64,000 nt of DNA. It comes from Rhizophlyctis rosea (lineage: Eukaryota > Chytridiomycota > Chytridiomycetes > Rhizophlyctidales > Rhizophlyctidaceae). Position numbers and translations under genes: made by a program. Every line of letters starts with the position of its first letter. The first letter of the stretch is position 1. The stretch lies in contig JADGJC010000002.1 of NCBI GenBank assembly GCA_027596075.1, positions 1-64,000 of the forward strand. Reading direction: 5' to 3'. Positions 44,283-54,951 of this stretch are shown one piece after another. The notes under the pieces are model-generated. The model had not been told where the DNA came from and did not search any database. It was given only the letters and a program-made list of their open reading frames with translations.

Positions 44283-45328
44283 CTAATGTTTGAGCTCTAC
44301 ACGCTTTCCTGGTTCCCATTCCTGAATTGCTCGTTTTATGTTGGTCCAGTATTGGAGGCGGACGGTGAGGTCTCGCGCTCGGTCCATATTCCCGGCGGCG
44401 AATGCGTCGCTGAGTTCTGATATTGTTTCCTGTAATCGTTCTGTGACCATCCCCATGCGTGAGCAGAATCGTCGATCATGATGAACAAAGCGATCCGTAC
44501 CGTCATTCTGTTTTGCGACCTCCCCCATCTCCTCCTCACTTGTCGCTTCTTCCAGCAGTTCCCGCGCCTCCAAGACCTCCATCAAAAGCTCCGGATCTTC
44601 CAGCGATGATGATTCTTCTACTTTCATATCTACTTGACTGAGCTACATTGCAAAATCCATCAGCGTTGTGTTCGATATTGGCTATGCCGCCCACTAACAA
44701 CATACCAGGTACTTCGCTCGCGCCAGTGGATCTCTTAGCGTTTGATATGCCTTATTTATGAATGACGACTGTACTTCAGAAAGCTCTTTCTCCGTCTGAA
44801 CATCAACCATCCACGCGTTAGCCTTCCTTTCCCCGCCGTTCATATATAACTCGTTGAATATAACGCCACACTCACCTCAGACTTCTGTTCAAACCCGTCC
44901 GGATGTACGGCCTGCTGTAACCGCAAAAACCGCCGTCGCAACGCTCCAACATCGATATCAAACGGGAGTGGACCGCCGTCGGAATTTGGCGTGGTGTTTT
45001 GTCCGGTGGAACTTGGCAGTAGAACGTTTGTATATCGTGCTGCTGGAGAAACAGGTTGAATAGCTCCACAGCCCTCATCGCCCTTTGCTTTTGATGACTC
45101 TATATCTTCCGCCGTGCGGCCGCAAAAGATCTCCGTGGGAGACGTTATTTGTGCGCCGCATCTCCAGCACTGTCTGGGTTTGAAGGGTTTTGCTGTTGTA
45201 TGATGCCGTATGAAGAGTTGATGTGAGGTGGGTGCGCGTGTTTTTGAATTTGTAGGAACACGAAGTTGGCGGCTAATTTGCGAAGGAAGAAGGTGGAGCA
45301 GTCGTCTGTTTAAGTGGATCCTATGCAT
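44283..45328 (-). CDS. HSCB: HSCB/Jac1-type J-protein co-chaperone
   Basis: Delivers the iron-sulfur scaffold to the mitochondrial Hsp70. The start is ATG 45328 (MHRIHLNRRLLHLLPSQISR), giving a mitochondrial presequence. It is followed by a four-Cys knuckle (CWRCGAQ ... FCGRTAE ... GCGAIQ) seen in animal and plant HSCB but absent from yeast Jac1. The J domain begins FDIDVGALRRRFLRLQQAVH and contains the HPD motif. After introns come the end of the J domain and the helical C-terminal domain that binds the scaffold (LLEEATSEEEMGEVAKQ, TISELSDAFAAGNMDRARDL). The 5' flank is where the mobile element is inserted, 112 bp from the start. Confidence 0.93.
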
Positions 45329-45445
45329 TCCTGATCGTGCGCACGGGCGTTTGAGAGAATGATAACAGTCTGACCTTGCTAAAATTTCACAGTTTAATTC
45401 ACGAAAAAAGGAATTGAAGCAGATGACAAATAAGCAAAGAACAGG

Positions 45446-45601
45446 ACTACTATACAGCTGGACAGTCAATACTACCAGTTTTTTTCAGCCACCCTCAGCG
45501 ATTTCCAAGCTCTAGTGAAAAATGGGTGAAAAGATAGTGAAAAAATAGGGACTAAAATGAGGGTAAGGTCTGAGGGTTAGTAATGAGGGTGAGGTCTGAG
45601 G
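45446..45601 (+). repeat. Left terminal inverted repeat (about 156 bp)
   Basis: Starts ACTACTATACAG and contains a run of seven T at 45479-45485 followed by CAGCCACCC. The inner part has a degenerate repeat of the form GAGGGTNAGGTCTGAGG. Compared with the right end it lacks most of the long T/A-rich stretch. Confidence 0.88.
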
Positions 45602-46214
45602 ATCAAAACAAGTTCAAGTGGGTGTGGATGTGATATGTGGCTGCAACGGCAACACTTTCACAAGCAAATATATGGGCAAACATTACAGAAACATATCTTA
45701 CAAAGCACACATGCTACCTACATTAAGGAATCTACTACTGCAACTCTTCTTCACCAGGCGCAAAAACCTCATGGGGAGTGTGCTGCAACCCATGGACAGG
45801 GCCATCCAGAAACATTAAACCTCAAATAGGCTAAGCAAGACCTGCAAATTAGCCACCAAAAAGCCACAATAGCCGTAAGCAACTCTTGATCCCACAGGAG
45901 GACGATTACGCCGTGAGCTAGTCGCATGGGAACTGCACTGGAACTTGTTCATGACAATTGGTACTTTCCTAACTAGTATCTCTCTATTCGTCCAGGTTAA
46001 CTTTTTGAAAATCGAGGAAAAAGTGCAAAAAAGGCATTGAGAAAACATGCGAAAAAGATTGAAAAAACTTGTGAAACAGGTTTGAATCTTCGCGATATTG
46101 CTGCAAATGAGCTGCTTGGAGAGGCGAGTATGAGGTCAGATCTTGCAATCATCCGCATCCATCCACTACTACTAGATAGTAGTTACTGCCACAAGCGTAA
46201 ATTAAGCCTGAAGC

Positions 46215-46607
46215 ATGATCCTAAAAGCGGCGAATAGTGATGCAAACAACGGAATTGGACAGCAGAGTAGTACAGCTGGTGGGTTGTTTTTAGGAAGGTG
46301 GGTGATGATATCCGATTTCCGTCAAGCAGGTATCAAGTCCGCCGGACTACCTGCACGACATTATGTAGCATGGATGGACAACTCTACTCTTAGATCAGTG
46401 AATGTAGATTCACAAATCCCAGTTGGACAGGGGCCGCCAATACTCATTAGAGTAACTATTTCGGTCAGCAAATTCCCGCCTCACTACACTTTACGCTTTC
46501 GATTCTTTCGCAATAAGTCACTGGCAAAAGCATTGCCCATATTCAGGCGCCTCCAGAGCACAATTGTTCCGATTGCTCATCAATGTATGTTACTGACCTG
46601 TATATGA
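46215..46607 (+). CDS. Unrecognised 130-codon frame inside the element
   Basis: An ATG-started open frame (MILKAANSDANNGIGQQSST) runs to 46607. It is the second-longest ATG frame in the element and lies on the opposite strand, downstream of the homeodomain gene. It shows no family motif that I recognise and could be chance. Listed because the element's mobility gene is unknown. Confidence 0.2.
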   Translation: MILKAANSDANNGIGQQSSTAGGLFLGRWVMISDFRQAGIKSAGLPARHYVAWMDNSTLRSVNVDSQIPVGQGPPILIRVTISVSKFPPHYTLRFRFFRNKSLAKALPIFRRLQSTIVPIAHQCMLLTCI

Positions 46608-46694
46608 TTGACAGGGTCACCTTTTTTTACATAGTATACAACTAATTGCAGCACTAACGTCTTGGGAACTTGTCATGCCGTGGCCAACTGCGAG

Positions 46695-47456
46695 TCATGA
46701 ATATGATGTGGATCGCAGGCGCTGAAGCAACCCACGATCTGGACGGCGAGCTGTTCAATCAATGAGCAAAACAAATCTTTAATTCTTCATCACTTGATCA
46801 TGCTCAAAGTGTTACTCACCGTTTATGAACCAATTTTCCAATTGTTTCTTTCCGATATTGAGCTCAGAGCATAATTGGTCTTTTTCTTCGTTGGTGGGGA
46901 AGGGATTGTTCAAGTGCTGTCTAAGCCAATTCTCCAGAACTTGCACCTTCCATTTAGGATGATTCGGGCGACTGGCATGAGAGGAATTTCGGGAATTGGA
47001 ATTATGGGACGATTGCTTTGGTCGTGGATGGCAGGAAGCGTGATGTTCGGGAGCCCAATCTGTACTGCTATCTTCAGATAGACCAGCGTCGGAGGAAACG
47101 GAGGCTGTAGACGCCGAGATAGAGCGAGGTTGGATGCGAGACGCAAGTATATTCCTCATATTATCTGATAGGTGGCTGAGAGTTTCCGCTAATGAGCGCT
47201 CTGAGTTGAGCGTCTGTTGACATGCTCTGAGGATATCGTTGGAAAGATGTGCGATTATAAAAAACAGGTGTCTATGTCTATTGGGACCTTCAGCAATCGG
47301 ATTTCTGCTGGGGACGTTTGACAGGAGCTGTACAGCTTCAGCACTGTGTACTTGGAGTTCTGTTGCGTCCGTTGTGACAAGCGCCATGTCTCGAATGGCC
47401 CAGAGCCTGTGAACAATGCTATCAATATCAGTATCTATTACGCTGGAGGTCAACAT
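46695..47456 (-). CDS. TALE-type homeodomain transcription factor inside the element
   Basis: A 230-residue protein from two exons (47456-46820 and 46750-46695) with a 69-base GT-AG intron. The N-terminal half has helical stretches (EAVQLLSNVPSRNPIAEGPN, LSNDILRACQQTLN). A Ser/Asn/His-rich linker follows. The homeodomain is near the C-terminus: WKVQVLENWLRQHLNNPFPT, EEKDQLCSELNIGKKQLENW, then WFIN joined across the intron to ARR. The NPFP step between helices 1 and 2 fits the three-residue loop extension of TALE homeodomains, and WFINARR is the DNA recognition helix. The tail after ARR is only 15 residues. Fungal mating-type HD proteins and IRX/MEIS/PBX-like factors share this class. Which it resembles most needs a tree. 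Confidence 0.9.
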
Positions 47457-47525
47457 GGTGCTGTATACTGAAAAATAAACAAACGTCCTCTGCCTCGTCG
47501 GATGGAGATTAAAGCTGAACCCCCC

Positions 47526-47571
47526 CTGTCAATCACAATTGTGATCACAGTGATTGACAGCTGATTGACAG
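47526..47571. promoter_or_regulatory. Three TGATTGACAG sites upstream of the homeodomain gene
   Basis: CTGTCAATCA at 47526-47535 is the reverse complement of TGATTGACAG, which occurs at 47551-47560 and at 47562-47571. The first two form an inverted repeat with 11-base arms and a 13-base spacer. TGATTGACAG is the known composite site for PBX with MEIS/PREP dimers in animals; TGACA is the core of the MEIS class. The sites are 70-115 bp upstream of the homeodomain start codon. Self-binding of the encoded protein is inference. Confidence 0.75.
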
Positions 47572-47573
47572 GT

Positions 47574-47596
47574 GGCGTAGCAAATTCGGCTACGCC
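47574..47596. repeat. 8-bp perfect hairpin next to the homeobox sites
   Basis: GGCGTAGC and GCTACGCC flank a 7-base spacer. It directly follows the third TGATTGACAG copy and may be a protein-binding palindrome or a cruciform. Function unknown. Confidence 0.7.
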
Positions 47597-48536
47597 CCTT
47601 TCAGCTTGAAAGAGACCTGTTGGCTCGTTTGTTCGGCCTTTTGAGAGTAAGTTTTGACAATGTTGCTGAGATCCTTTATGTGGACTGGACTTTCATCCTT
47701 ACCAGAAGGAAATCAACGCACTAATTACAGGGGCAGTCCTATCCTGGTTACTCTTTTAAGGGGAAGCAACAATGGATACGCTCAACCTAATCGTGAAAGT
47801 CTTCAATGAATAACACCCGTCTTTTTTCATGCCCGTGCCTCATTTACTGTGGCCCGAAAGGCGGCTTCGTAATGCTTGGACGCTGCTGAACACCATTTGA
47901 CCAGGAGAGTTTGGTGTTTTTCTTTTCATTTCCTGTCGTGCTTACACATTCTTCACTTGCCTTGGTAGTGGTTAAAATTGTGGATTGGACGAGTCATGTA
48001 ATATGACTAGTCATCATTTCACGAGCGCTAGGCAGAGGTGGAGAACATGGTGCGGGAGCAGCTCTCGGAGTGGCCGTTCTTGGATGATGAGGTGAAGGCG
48101 CACGTGGACGCGGAGCAGAGGGGTGACATCGGCGGGTAGAAGGAGGCAAAGAAGGGATTTGCACGGTGCTTAGGTCCATCATGGGCCAGCGCGTCCCCTA
48201 CAACCTGGATGTTCCAACCCGTCGTCGCGCCCTTCGCGCCACTGCGAACCCTTGCAACCTCATGCCGATGGTGTCCGTAGCTAGAGCTAGACACAGCGCT
48301 TGGGAATGTGCGTCTTCATTGACTAGCAAGCTGGCAACGTCTCGTCTGTATTTTACGCTTCTTTTGTAATGTTTGCTGATTGCTTTGCGATTCCGAAGCT
48401 TGGGAATGTCTCCGTATATCACATCGATGCACACTTGATCGGGTTTTGATTTTCTTGCTTCTCATTGCTTCACCGCACTATCACACGCTGACTTGCAGTG
48501 ACATCGCAGCGATATGGCAGCAATATCACAGGTTGA

Positions 48537-48748
48537 ACCTCAGACCTGACCCTCATTCCTAACCCTCAGACCTAACCGTCATCTTAGTCCCCATTTTCTC
48601 ACTTTTTTTCACCTTTTTTTTCACTTTTTTCACTTTTTTCACCCTTTTTTTCACACTTTTTTCCTGGCTCATTTTTCACTAGAGCTTGGAAATCCGTGGG
48701 GGTGGCTGAAAAAAACTGGTAGTATTGACTGTCCATCTGTATAGTAGT
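48537..48748 (-). repeat. Right terminal inverted repeat (about 212 bp)
   Basis: The reverse complement begins ACTACTATACAG and matches the left end closely for about 85 bases. It then has an expanded stretch of T-runs with CAC spacers (48600-48662) that the left arm largely lacks. The inner 50 bases again match the left arm (GGTCTGAGGGTTAG block). Confidence 0.88.
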
Positions 48749-49050
48749 AACAGGGAAACTGGGAACCAAGGTGAGCAAGTTGGATCATGGATGGTGACGA
48801 CGCCACATGTCCGCCATGGCCCATGCGACGCCCGCTGATCGCGTCTCGCTCGATGTCGGGCCACATTTTGATGTGAGGTCATTTATCCTGACGCGTGATG
48901 GGCAGTAGGAGTCGGTTGGACGATGGACCCTTTCCCATCCTTTTTCCGCAAACCATATAAATAGCCACATTTTGAAGCAAAGGCACCAAGGCGTCCAAAG
49001 ATCCACTATCCTCTAAATCAATATCATTTTTGACCTCTCAATCTACAAAG
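48749..49050 (+). promoter_or_regulatory. SDR gene promoter with a TATA-like box
   Basis: TATAAATAG at 48956-48964 lies about 87 bp before the SDR start codon at 49051. The mobile element ends 300 bp before that start, so its right arm could influence this promoter. The rest of the stretch has no gene. Confidence 0.55.
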
Positions 49051-50331
49051 ATGCCTGACATTTTCAAAACCTTGACCACCGGGGAGTATCCTCACAATCC
49101 TACTCATTGGAAAATCAGGAACCGCAACCATTTCCCGTTCTCCAGCTGGGATCGGCTACCGACCTTATCGTTTGCAGTCTCGAACACCGCCCTTGCCCTA
49201 TCTGCAACAGTTTCGTCGCTCGCCAGCGCTGTATTGACTTTGACAGTGTTTGTACCCATCGGGCTGGTCAGGAGTGTTGTGGATCTCTTTACAAGGAGGA
49301 AAAATGCGATTCAACTGAATGGGCGGGAGAGGGTGGTGGTGATCACCGGTGCAAGGTACGGATCATGCGCCGGCTTCAGATATCAATTCTCATCTTCATA
49401 CTGACTGATTACCATGCGGAAAATAATAGTAGCGGCATGGGTGGAGCTTTGGCGCTTGAATATTCCGCACCGGGAACGCATTTGTACATCATTGGCCGCA
49501 ATAAGGGTAGACTTTCAAGAATTGAGTGTTTCTAATTACGAAGCGCTGTATTTACCATTGCTCATCAGAGCGGTTGGATATCATCCGACAGCAAGGGGTT
49601 GATCATGGCGCGAAAGTGGATACACTATCCATTGATTTCCTGACGGACGCGGGTCGTTCCGAGCTAAAAGCACAGATTACCGAAATCGATCGCAAGCACA
49701 ATGGGATTGATCTCATAATTTGCGCGGCGGCTGTAACTGGTCACTTGGACGAGATTGAAGGAGGAGAGGGTTGGGGCGATGAAATGGCCAACAGGATTAT
49801 TGACGTGAACTTGAAGGCCGTTATGAATTCCGCGTTGGTTGCTTGGGAACTCATGGCGAAGAGGAAGCGGGGACAGGTATGACTTTAATGCATCTACTTT
49901 GTGGTTTGCAAATGCTAACTCCAACCCGGGTGTAGATCTGCATCTTCTCATCCATTGCAGGGTGGTTCACGGTACCCAGTCTTGCCCTCTACGGATCCAG
50001 CAAAGCCTTCCTCAAACTCTTCGGCATGAACCTTCGCTCAATGTCCATTCCCTACAACATCAACGTCACAACCGTCTTCCCGGGCCTCGTCCATTCAAAA
50101 ATGACCGAGACCATGATGCCTCATTCCACCTTCCCACGATGGGCCTTCGTACACCCGCTCAAGGCCGCCCAGATTATCAAGTCTGGCTTGGAAGAAAACA
50201 GGTCGATTGTGACCTTCCCACTTTCGGAATCATTGCCCCAATTTGCATTGCAGGGTGTAAACCCTCTGTGTGAGGAGCTCGGGCTGTGGTTTGGTCAGGG
50301 AAGTGATGTTGCGACAGACTTCGCTTCATGA
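49051..50331 (+). CDS. Membrane-anchored short-chain dehydrogenase/reductase
   Basis: NAD(P)H-dependent oxidoreductase of the SDR superfamily. The N-terminus (MPDIFKTLTTGEYPHNPTHW) is followed by a hydrophobic segment (TVSSLASAVLTLTVFVPIGL) that is a likely membrane anchor. The cofactor motif joins across an intron as ITGASSGMGGALALEYSAPG. The middle motif usually NNAG is ICAAAV here. Catalytic residues are visible: Ser in ICIFSSIAGW and YxxxK as YGSSKAF. The C-terminus (SLPQFALQGVNPL) carries no ER signal that I can see. 3-ketodihydrosphingosine reductase has the same plan, but SDR subfamilies cannot be told apart by eye. Start chosen as ATG 49051; an upstream TTG extends the frame. Confidence 0.85.
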
Positions 50332-51742: not shown

Positions 51743-53956
51743 TCAGAGGACTAACACATTTGGACAATTCTCGCCCAGATGCCCATTGACATCACAATAC
51801 CGACACGCCGCCTTACAATCCGCCGATTGATGATCCTTGGCCCAGCAGTTGGAGCAACGAATCGTCGACCCCCCGTACCGATGGAACCCCGAGTGCGCTG
51901 TCTTGCCCTCTCTCTCCCGGCCCCATCCACGCAATCGGCTACTATTCCCATTGCCTATCCCGCCATTCCTTTGCGCCTCCCTCAACTGACCGACCTCGTT
52001 CCGCAACTGATTGGCCTCGTCCCGCAACGCCTTGTTCTCTTCCGACAGCTTGCTGCACTGCTGCTTCATATGATCCAGAATTAATGATTCGTCGGCGAGT
52101 TGCTGGCGCAACGTCAGGTTATCGGCCATCAGAGCTTCAATTTGGAGTTGATGTTCGTCGGCAGGTGCAGGATCTGAGGATGTACGGTCCGTAGTCGTAC
52201 CATTGGTGCCGTCGTTGCTGCTGGGCGTTTCCGTGCGATCGTCGGTCAACGTCGCGACAATGCTTGATGGAGTGTTCTGAGGAACGATGGATTGCTCATC
52301 GTTCTGTGCCGCCTCTCCGCCCTTCTTTTTGTGCTTCTTCTTCCCGCCTTTGCTGGATTGACTGGAGTTGTTTGCCCCGTGGGCTGGCCCTTTCACACCC
52401 AGACTGACGATGCGTTCAGCCTCCTCCAGCAGAAGTTTAGCCACAATCCGCCCCAATTCCGACTGACAGTACTGAACTGCATTGTGCAAATTTTCCTTCA
52501 ATTCCGAGCTGCGCGTGATGAGGTCTTGGAGTTGCGTATCTTGGGTCATTTGGATCCGGTATTCGCGGAGCAACGTGGATTCCTTAGCTTCGCCAGCAGC
52601 AAGGATGGCGGTAACGGAAAGGAGGGCGGCTTTCACGGGTGCCGACGTCGTTGTCAATTGATGCAATCTTTCAAGCAAATCCGCCAGAATCTTCCGCTGC
52701 CGAACGTCGAAATCTTTCACGCGAGCTTGCCATTCATGACTTGCGCAACGCTCCATGCGGCCGAGTGCTGAGTTTGTGGAGTTTTCGAAGGAGGATTTGA
52801 ACGACACAAGCTGGGCAATCAGGAAATCGCGATGGGATTGGATTTTGGCTCTGATGAAATCGACTGTACTTTGCAAATCCGTCTCCGCGTCCGTCAAAGC
52901 GCCGAGGGCCTCCCGCACACGGCTTGCTGCAAATGGGCAATTTGGTTTGGTGGCCAGCAAAATCGGGAGCGTCTTCTCGCGGAAGGCTACGAACGCCGTG
53001 GTGAAGCGACGAATTGGAGTCGATACTGTTTCTGTCTCGAACTTCTCGAAATGTGCGATGACCCTTCCCATCCAAGTAGAAAACAATCCGTCCGCATCTT
53101 CAACCGTGGGTTGACTCCCTCCTTTCCGTCCCTTTTTCTTCCATTGATCTGTGTTCTTCGCCCAAAAGTCTCCGAATGAAATGGTACTTTCACTGAGACC
53201 CCGATCCTGCTTCAAGTTTCGGATGGGCAAACCAACAGCATCCAACTTCGCAAATTCCTGCAACACCGCCCGCGAACTCCCCCACAAACTTTCCACCTGC
53301 TGATACAAGATCTTCCGATGTTTTTGTTCTTGCCGTCCCAATAGCTCCTTTATGCTGTCCGCTTCCAGGGCTGCATCCCGCCATGTTTTCAGAGGCGATG
53401 GTTTCGGAAGCGGCCTGGCGTCCCCACACACCAAAAACTGAAAATCCTCCGCCGCCAAAATGTAGGTGTTCTTTTCCTTCTGAACGTGACTTGGCAGCAA
53501 GCATAGATGTGCGAGCTTCTTCTGAAGGCTTGTCCCGATGCCCCCCAATGTCTCATCGATCATTCTGTCCACGTCGACCGATGCAAACTGCTGGCCCCAG
53601 TCAATCGCCCCAGATGGAGCCGAAATCCACTGTTCTCCCAAACTCGCGACCTTGGCGCGGTCGCACTCCTGCAAATCCGAACACAACTCGACAAGAGGTT
53701 TCCGGCAAGGTGGCTTCCCCGTGATAGTTAGCTTGCCGAACTCGCGTTCGCCCAATGTGCGCTTGGAGAGTAGCTGACACCAATCACGTAGCGGGATGGA
53801 AAGCGCAGTGCTTCGAAGTTCTTTGTTCAACGCATCTTTCATGACCGCAACATGATCGAATCCGCGATCGGACAGGATACTCAGTGTCGTTTTTGGGTTG
53901 GCCATTCTGGATGGTCCTGGTGTAAGAAGTTTGAGTGAAGATGACAGTGATGTCAT
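51743..53956 (-). CDS. Intronless protein with two CCHC zinc knuckles
   Basis: A 737-residue single-exon frame starting MTSLSSSLKLLTPGPSRMAN. The first 500 residues form a long helical part with no catalytic motif that I recognise. A Lys-rich patch (KGGKKKHKKKGGEA) and a Ser/Thr-rich linker follow. A heptad coiled coil comes next (LTLRQQLADESLILDHMKQQ). At the C-terminus are two C-x2-C-x4-H-x4-C knuckles (CSNCWAKDHQSADC and CRYCDVNGHLGENC) that bind RNA or single-stranded nucleic acid in other proteins. Lack of introns in an intron-rich window and the Gag-like knuckles could mean an origin from a retroelement or retrocopy, but no protease or polymerase is attached. Function unknown. Confidence 0.75.
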   Translation of the reverse strand: MTSLSSSLKLLTPGPSRMANPKTTLSILSDRGFDHVAVMKDALNKELRSTALSIPLRDWCQLLSKRTLGEREFGKLTITGKPPCRKPLVELCSDLQECDRAKVASLGEQWISAPSGAIDWGQQFASVDVDRMIDETLGGIGTSLQKKLAHLCLLPSHVQKEKNTYILAAEDFQFLVCGDARPLPKPSPLKTWRDAALEADSIKELLGRQEQKHRKILYQQVESLWGSSRAVLQEFAKLDAVGLPIRNLKQDRGLSESTISFGDFWAKNTDQWKKKGRKGGSQPTVEDADGLFSTWMGRVIAHFEKFETETVSTPIRRFTTAFVAFREKTLPILLATKPNCPFAASRVREALGALTDAETDLQSTVDFIRAKIQSHRDFLIAQLVSFKSSFENSTNSALGRMERCASHEWQARVKDFDVRQRKILADLLERLHQLTTTSAPVKAALLSVTAILAAGEAKESTLLREYRIQMTQDTQLQDLITRSSELKENLHNAVQYCQSELGRIVAKLLLEEAERIVSLGVKGPAHGANNSSQSSKGGKKKHKKKGGEAAQNDEQSIVPQNTPSSIVATLTDDRTETPSSNDGTNGTTTDRTSSDPAPADEHQLQIEALMADNLTLRQQLADESLILDHMKQQCSKLSEENKALRDEANQLRNEVGQLREAQRNGGIGNGNSSRLRGWGREREGKTAHSGFHRYGGSTIRCSNCWAKDHQSADCKAACRYCDVNGHLGENCPNVLVL

Positions 53957-54951
53957 AATATCAGCTTACTCGTGAAACATACCACGCCTTATCCAGGGTA
54001 ACGGAACTCAAGATCTCAAAGCTGACCAGCCTCCAAAATATTTCAGATGCGAGGTTGGGAGTGCACCCCTTTGCGTGCGCTTTTGGGCTCATGGAATGGG
54101 AAAACAAACAATTCCCGAATTAGTGGCACAGGAAGTAAGTGACACAGAGTGGCTCATCTCTGCATTGAAATTGGGAATTGCACTTTCACATCGTCAAGTA
54201 TACAACCAATATGGCCCATTTGAGGCACCTAATTCTTATTGTAGGAAATTGTACCACCAGAATGACATCAGGATAACTAATCAATCCACTTGACACAAGC
54301 ATGAGCCACAATTCAAATTAATTTAGGATATGCACGAGCCTCATTATAAAGTCCTCCATCTTCAACACCCATTATGAAAGAATGCTAGAAGAGTGAAGAC
54401 ATGGAAGGATGAGAATAACGGGCTAACGGGACCAAAAATATGCCGAGGGACCCGACTCCCCACCTCCATAGCCGTTTTACCATCGCACCTTGATTGCAAA
54501 GTTTGAAAGCACCAAAGGCCTTGGACCCTGGGGACCCCATTTTGGTCCCATACAGCCGGGCGCGTCGGAGTTGTGGTGTGGTCCATGCGCATGGACCAAA
54601 GTCACCAAATTGACTGAGCCATCTTCTCTTCTAAAGATACCTACACCTCTCAAAGTCGACACCCTTTCTCTCCAACCTACAAACAACTCATGTCCACCTG
54701 GCATCTAAATCTCCGATATGCACACTTCATCGGCAGGTGATCACCACCGCTGATCTATCAACCCTCTCGGTAAAAGGTTCGTCCCTTGTGTCAGGCTGTC
54801 AAACGTTTAATCGTTTTCTAGGGGGTATTCCCTCCAGAACATTGCGACTTACACCACTGTCAACGACTCAACCTTCACAGACGACGCATCATACCATCGT
54901 CAATTGTAGTCTACGCCTAGCTGGCTTTGCCACACTTCCGTTCCCTCTCCT
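53957..54951. other. Intergenic region of about 1 kb
   Basis: Separates the zinc-knuckle gene from the membrane-protein gene. Their starts diverge, so both promoters are here. A TATAAAG sequence occurs near 54345. Short frames at 54362-54967 look like chance. Confidence 0.4.

What the first reader, a model, noticed from the sequence alone, without database searches (positions are those of the whole stretch)
45440..48754. TIR element with a 6-bp duplication and a homeodomain gene as cargo
Seen: two inverted termini starting ACTACTATACAG, nearly identical for about 85 bases and again in the inner 50 bases, exactly bounded by AACAGG on both sides. The only clear gene inside is a complete TALE homeodomain gene. 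Known: homeodomain genes define mating-type loci in many fungi, and I know of no described DNA element that carries one as cargo. Inference: either a captured regulator, an element-encoded regulator of mobility, or a mobile mating-type-like cassette. No transposase is recognised.
Basis: partly seen in the sequence, partly recalled or inferred. Interest (0 to 1): 0.92.

Follow-up and report, generated by a model that had tools for sequence, protein, structure and literature searches.

The report
Inverted-repeat DNA insertion carrying homeobox gene
In a soil chytrid fungus, a 3.3-kb piece of DNA with the hallmarks of a jumped-in transposon sits between two ordinary genes and carries a complete gene-regulator gene whose control region holds a cluster of the DNA motif that animal relatives of this regulator bind.

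Summary
The structure is real. It has terminal inverted repeats (TIRs) of 161 and 216 bp (outer 79 nt: 75/79 identical), the only inverted repeat in the window at BLAST E<=1e-3, with AACAGG directly at both outer ends. Inside is an intact two-exon TALE homeobox gene (230 aa), no recognisable transposase, and no other copy of the ends was found in the 44.1-Mb assembly. The organism is not a mushroom but, by protein identity, the chytrid Rhizophlyctis rosea, so the mating-type reading loses its basis. The host's one full-length paralog (C400) has no flanking TIRs. In a second, diverged R. rosea genome the two flanking genes have consecutive locus tags (HK097_006369, _006370) on one contig, which fits an empty site, by annotation only. 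New observation: all four TGATTGACAG sites of the window lie in the element, three of them 70-115 bp upstream of the homeobox ATG. TGATTGACAG is the published Pbx:Prep "DECA" site of animal TALE proteins. Best reading: an old, solitary, non-autonomous TIR transposon carrying a captured TALE gene, possibly self-regulated. The superfamily is unresolved (6-bp duplication; termini unlike the published fungal IS3EU ones). Mobility, capture and autoregulation are inferred, not shown.

The parts
45440..45445 (.). left target-site duplication AACAGG
   Evidence: same 6 bp at 48749-48754
45446..45606 (+). left terminal inverted repeat, starts ACTACTATACAG
45602..45690 (+). older, weaker continuation of the left arm (blocks 45602-45636 and 45664-45690, 80% and 78% to the right side)
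45933..45983 (+). 51-bp piece, 82-84% like a short dispersed repeat found at C427, C112:355 kb and C439
46605..46614 (+). TGATTGACAG (DECA-type) site, 80 nt beyond the stop codon of the homeobox gene
46695..46750 (-). exon 2 of the TALE homeobox gene (ARRPDRGLLQRLRSTSYS, stop)
46751..46819 (-). 69-nt GT-AG intron, same position and phase as in paralog C400 (splice sites by inspection, no RNA data)
46820..47456 (-). exon 1 of the TALE homeobox gene, ATG at 47456; N-terminal helical region plus most of the homeodomain
47526..47571 (.). three TGATTGACAG sites (47526-47535 -, 47551-47560 +, 47562-47571 +) 70-115 bp upstream of the homeobox ATG
48033..48300 (.). GC-rich block (61% GC; other parts of the element 40-47%) with no relative found in the genome; possibly captured DNA
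48362..48450 (-). older, weaker continuation of the right arm
48533..48748 (-). right terminal inverted repeat, with an extra tract of about 55 nt
48749..48754 (.). right target-site duplication AACAGG
44283..45328 (-). flanking host gene: HscB/Jac1-type co-chaperone, ATG at 45328 (111 bp from the element); exons read off by eye
49051..50331 (+). flanking host gene: SDR-type NAD(P)-binding protein HDV00_003767, ATG at 49051

Best explanation
A non-autonomous TIR DNA transposon carrying a captured, intron-bearing TALE homeobox gene inserted once into the roughly 0.4-kb divergent promoter between HscB and an SDR gene of a Rhizophlyctis rosea lineage, duplicating AACAGG. A transposase acting in trans, not found in this assembly, would have moved it. 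The element is now solitary and its inner arms are decaying. The homeobox gene is probably expressed from its own promoter and held by TALE proteins (itself, a partner, or both) at the three TGATTGACAG sites, that is, by autoregulation. Shown: arms, duplication, intact gene, paralogy, site cluster, single copy in the assembly. Inferred: transposition, capture from host DNA, expression, autoregulation.
For: Arms match at 75/79 in the outer 79 nt and are flanked exactly by AACAGG. No other inverted repeat at E<=1e-3 in the 64 kb. Taking the element away by arithmetic leaves 413 bp between the two head-to-head ATGs. In a second R. rosea genome, HscB and the SDR have consecutive locus tags HK097_006369 and _006370 on one 118,513-bp contig that also holds coq1. 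A host paralog on C400 aligns over nearly the whole exon-1 protein (34-39% identity) with an intron at the same place and phase, and its fetched 10 kb show no inverted repeat pair except an 18-nt palindrome. Keeping the intron speaks for a DNA-level copy, not a retrocopy. All 4 TGATTGACAG of the window are in the element (expected 0.27 for the whole window, 0 of 100 shuffles reach 4). In 2000 shuffles of the interior no complex 10-mer reaches 4 copies. A direct pair within 12 bp occurs once in the 44.1-Mb assembly, here. The published DECA motif is this sequence (PMC6023610, passages).
Against: No second copy of the termini or of the body was found, no transposase, superfamily not identified. 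The empty site rests on locus tags, not on DNA; this homeobox protein itself was not found in the protein database (148 candidates, only lengths of about 126-402 aa considered), so it may be unannotated in HDV00 and could be unannotated in HK097 too. Homeodomain position 55, Arg in animal TALEs and in contact with the TGAC guanine (recalled), is Pro here, so TGACAG specificity is not assured; the inferred C11 protein also has Pro, C400 has Lys. No TGATTGACAG in the fetched stretches around C400 or the other homeobox genes, and none in the TIRs. Matches of 7/10 or better in the TIRs: 3 left and 3 right (best 8/10), shuffle means 1.27 and 1.52. No expression data were available.
Confidence: 0.6

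Rival explanations
1. The homeobox gene is the element's own regulator: its protein binds the element and controls mobility or silencing of the family, and the transposase part has been lost from this copy.
For: It is the only frame of 40 inside that passes a Pfam cut-off; four TALE-type sites lie in the element on both sides of the gene.
Against: The exact sites lie beside the gene, not in the TIRs, and TIR matches to the motif are not clearly above shuffles. The protein has a host paralog, C400, without flanking TIRs. No other element copy was found to show a family that carries the gene.
Confidence: 0.14
2. The homeobox gene is a resident gene of this interval and the arms arose around it, by two insertions of one repeat or an inverted duplication.
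For: The ends were not found elsewhere in the genome, which is unusual for a transposon family.
Against: An exact 6-bp duplication at the outer boundaries of matching arms; the terminal sequence occurs only at the two outer ends, so neither arm has a second terminus of its own; consecutive locus tags of the flanking genes in HK097.
Confidence: 0.13
3. A decayed transposon remnant with an accidentally intact but silent gene: no regulation, ordinary genomic debris.
For: Single copy, no transposase, diverged inner arms, Pro at homeodomain position 55; nothing here shows expression.
Against: ORF of 212 codons plus a second exon in frame after a GT-AG intron, with WFINARR intact; Pro55 is shared with the inferred C11 protein; the promoter site cluster is not explained by the shuffles.
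Confidence: 0.13

Closest known systems
Pack-type / gene-capturing non-autonomous TIR transposons (recalled)
   Same: TIRs, duplication, host-derived gene with intron inside, no transposase
   Different: single copy here; a whole transcription-factor gene with its own upstream region; superfamily unknown
TET/JBP-carrying fungal DNA transposons (PMC12730594, passages read)
   Same: fungal DNA transposons with an accessory regulatory gene
   Different: the accessory gene is a dioxygenase, in transposons of Pucciniomycetes, Agaricomycetes and Pezizomycetes; homeodomain and homeobox occur 0 times in that main text
IS3EU DNA transposons
   Same: 6-bp target-site duplication (PMC12730594)
   Different: the TET-bearing IS3EU families of rust fungi end TAYGG..CCRTA; here ACTACTATACAG; no transposase to compare. 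hAT6 also makes 6-bp duplications (same paper); its termini were not compared
HD mating-type loci of basidiomycetes (recalled)
   Same: TALE-class homeodomain gene
   Different: chytrid host; single unpaired gene; full-length relative is another single gene of the host
Animal PREP/MEIS/TGIF TALE proteins
   Same: TALE homeodomain (best PDB match PKNOX1, E 6.5e-12); DECA-type sites beside the gene
   Different: Pro instead of Arg at homeodomain position 55; N-terminal region related only to C400 in this genome

Membership tests
TIR DNA transposon (class II) | terminal inverted repeats at the exact ends | tested here: met
   75/79 in the outer 79 nt
TIR DNA transposon (class II) | target-site duplication | tested here: met
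   AACAGG on both sides
TIR DNA transposon (class II) | other copies in the genome (usual, not strictly required) | tested here: not met
   ends found only at this locus; with 2 mismatches in 17 bases 6 hits, 2 of them this element, reversed control 11. Lowers the claim; the 634-contig assembly may have lost or collapsed copies
TIR DNA transposon (class II) | empty site in a relative | tested here: inconclusive
   consecutive locus tags of the flanking genes in HK097; no DNA read
TIR DNA transposon (class II) | transposase in cis (autonomous copy) | tested here: not met
   none among 40 frames of 40 aa or more scanned; a non-autonomous copy lacks it by definition
TIR DNA transposon (class II) | matching transposase elsewhere in the genome | tested here: inconclusive
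   only KDZ searched: no match, without a positive control; other superfamilies not searched
IS3EU | 6-bp duplication | tested here: met
   definition from PMC12730594
IS3EU | termini TAYGG..CCRTA (TET-bearing families of rust fungi) | tested here: not met
   termini ACTACTATACAG
TALE homeodomain | Homeobox_KN with WFINARR recognition helix | tested here: met
Basidiomycete HD mating-type locus | HD1/HD2 pair in a basidiomycete MAT context | tested here: not met
   chytrid host; one homeobox gene in the interval

The most novel reading that the evidence does not exclude
A mobile, self-regulating transcription-factor cassette: a TIR element that carries a TALE gene under its own DECA-type autoregulatory promoter, so that each insertion brings a TALE-responsive control region into a host promoter, here the shared HscB/SDR promoter.
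Probability: 0.2. Interest if true: 0.78.

Novelty: new variant of a known kind. Interest (0 to 1): 0.52.

Why it matters
If confirmed, it would be a DNA element in an early-diverging fungus that mobilised a whole homeobox regulator with candidate binding sites of its own. It would also suggest that the TGATTGACAG (DECA) site, known from animal TALE dimers, is used in fungi, that is, older than animals. That can be tested with one protein and one short promoter.

Tried and rejected
Mating-type cassette: rejected; chytrid host, single gene, full-length relative is another single gene. Inverted segmental duplication without insertion: disfavoured by the exact 6-bp duplication. Allelic empty contig in the same assembly: none by the left flank (right flank not searched). 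Other copies of the termini: none by DNA, by pattern with 3 mismatches in 30 specified bases, or above control with 2 mismatches in 17. The 4 weak hits showed no inverted partner, but the script misread the orientation of the two minus-strand loci and looked in one direction only, so this is a weak check. KDZ transposase: no match, and the tool warns that nothing rang in its control genomes either. Protein relatives of the homeobox protein among 5.8 billion proteins: none at E<=1e-3 among 148 word-sharing candidates; it did not return C400's HDV00_008679 either, which is in that database, so the search is insensitive. The 51-bp match to C427 looked like a coding exon at first; the matching block is 74-85 bp in three places and the frames outside it disagree, so I take it as a short dispersed repeat; no Rfam match in the four loci searched beyond one sub-threshold tRNA hit at one end of L035. 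DECA-like sites in the TIRs: not clearly above shuffles. Literature, search listings only: homeodomain or homeobox with transposons, (2 papers; 15 listed of 64; 10 papers): the listed titles and abstract beginnings describe no homeobox gene carried by a TIR element; ACTACTATACAG occurs in 0 papers; Rhizophlyctis rosea with genome and transposable, 0 papers; other listings. Read in passages: PMC12730594, PMC10051438, PMC6023610, PMC11109268. The structure model (mean pLDDT 62.9, pTM 0.36, two-row alignment) was not followed by a fold search.
Full report
Observation. The sequence shows AACAGG at 45440-45445 and 48749-48754, each directly outside an inverted arm that starts ACTACTATACAG. The outer 79 nt of the arms agree at 75 positions; a minus-strand self-BLAST of the 64-kb window (E<=1e-3) returns only segments of this pair. 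The arms go on inward at 88.7% over 71 nt, then as two older colinear blocks at 80% and 78%. The right arm carries an extra tract of about 55 nt. Outer ends better preserved than inner ones are what one expects if the ends were kept by use and the inside was not; this is an inference.

The gene. On the minus strand an ORF starting at 47456 runs to a GT-AG intron (46819-46751) and a second exon ending at 46695, giving 230 aa. Pfam: Homeobox_KN, 60.9 bits. PDB by sequence: 25 distinct sequences at E<=1e-3, PKNOX1, TGIF and MEIS homeodomains first. An AlphaFold model of the exon-1 protein from a two-row alignment gives the three homeodomain helices and a helical N-terminus at modest confidence (mean pLDDT 62.9). 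The recognition helix reads WFINARRP; animal TALEs have Arg where this has Pro (TGIF; its role in contacting DNA is recalled). All 40 frames of 40 aa or more wholly inside the element were scanned against Pfam; none but the homeobox passes a cut-off.

Host. The protein search with the C400 paralog returned one protein, HDV00_008679 of Rhizophlyctis rosea, 100% identical over 92% of the query. The SDR gene right of the element is HDV00_003767 (100%) on a contig of 439,747 bases, the length of this window's contig C112. The organism is therefore taken to be R. rosea, a chytrid (taxonomy). One detail does not fit: the database gives 193,420 bases for the contig of HDV00_008679, while C400 here has 180,402; I cannot explain this.

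Copy number. Searches of the 44.1-Mb assembly with the left end, the interior, the right end and two end patterns found no second copy. The tool says that its DNA search skips very common words, so absence is not proof. The only outside match of the interior was 51 bp, like part of a short dispersed repeat seen at three places. The left flank is unique, so no allelic empty contig was found; the right flank was not searched. The assembly has 634 contigs, so collapsed or missing copies cannot be excluded.

Relatives of the gene. Of 10 Homeobox_KN places in the genome, only C400 matches over nearly the whole exon-1 protein (34-39% identity), with the intron at the same place and phase. In the homeodomain alone C11 (62%) and C400 (60%) are closest. 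An intron at this position can also be drawn in C11 and two members of the C471 cluster, so it does not single out C400 as the source. In the fetched stretches around the other homeobox genes (E<=1e-2) no inverted repeat pair flanks a homeobox; the one pair found, in the C540 stretch, lies well away from it.

Empty site. A chimeric query of four neighbouring proteins (the 8000 candidates sharing most words were scored) returned 27 proteins. Among them is a second R. rosea set, HK097, at 56-77% identity: HscB = HK097_006369, SDR = HK097_006370, and a coq1 protein, all with a contig length of 118,513 bases. Consecutive tags mean that no annotated gene lies between HscB and the SDR there. This fits an empty site but is not DNA evidence; an unannotated gene is possible, as this very homeobox gene was not found as a protein of HDV00. 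HscB of HDV00 was not among the 27 either. Without the element the two ATGs here would be 413 bp apart.

TALE sites. All four TGATTGACAG of the window lie in the element: three at 47526-47571, 70-115 bp upstream of the homeobox ATG, one at 46605-46614 just beyond its stop (expected 0.27 in the whole window, 0 of 100 shuffles reach 4). I noticed the motif in the repeat list first, so I also asked how often any complex 10-mer reaches four copies in shuffles of the interior: 0 of 2000 (three or more: 69 of 2000). The three promoter copies could stem from local duplication, so they may not be independent. Genome-wide there are 176 sites against 17 for the reversed control pattern; about 84 are expected from equal base use and about 186 from the window's shuffle rate (my arithmetic), so the motif is not clearly enriched overall. 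A direct pair within 12 bp occurs once in the assembly, here. [quoted passage not shown] No such site occurs within the fetched stretches around the other homeobox genes.

Mechanism. Most likely a transposase in trans, now lost or absent from the assembly, moved a TIR element that had captured a TALE gene at the DNA level. The insertion split a compact divergent promoter. The gene probably remained under its own promoter with TALE sites. Steps shown: arms, duplication, gene integrity, paralogy, site cluster, single copy as far as searched. Steps inferred: movement, capture, expression, autoregulation.

Comparison. The 6-bp duplication is known for IS3EU and for hAT6 (PMC12730594, passages), but the termini differ from the rust-fungus IS3EU termini given there, and no transposase is available. 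I do not assign a superfamily. Accessory genes in fungal DNA transposons are known (TET/JBP, same paper). A homeobox gene as cargo was not found in the listings (15 of 64 papers listed); the library holds open-licence papers only.

After a recount I added (all inner frames scanned; distances), corrected 112 to 111 bp and 81 to 80 nt, and stated the contig-length mismatch.

Noticed in passing
contig C471:160.9-165.8 kb (locus L023): Four TALE homeobox places in tandem on one strand within 5 kb; one carries stops in the matched stretch (C471:162347-162637) and one lacks the WFIN motif. A possible chytrid homeobox cluster of unknown role.
   Followed up: partly
C427:282-366, C112:355.2 kb, C439:9.1 kb, window 45933-45983: Short dispersed repeat of about 75-85 bp, 91-97% identical among three places and 82-84% in the element; no Rfam match above threshold, no Pfam match of two frames.
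   Followed up: partly
window 48033-48300: Block of 61% GC inside an otherwise AT-richer element, without relatives found in the genome; contains a 30-codon frame with GC-rich codons.
   Followed up: partly
loci L020, L019, L023: Inferred R. rosea TALE proteins differ at homeodomain position 55 (Pro, Lys, Cys), where animal TALEs have Arg.
   Followed up: no
contig C400 (L020) and HDV00_008679: The database gives a contig of 193,420 bases for a protein identical to the C400 gene, while C400 has 180,402 bases.
   Followed up: no
window 51746-53965: Open frame of 740 aa right of the SDR, ending in zinc-knuckle-like cysteine motifs (motif by eye).
   Followed up: no
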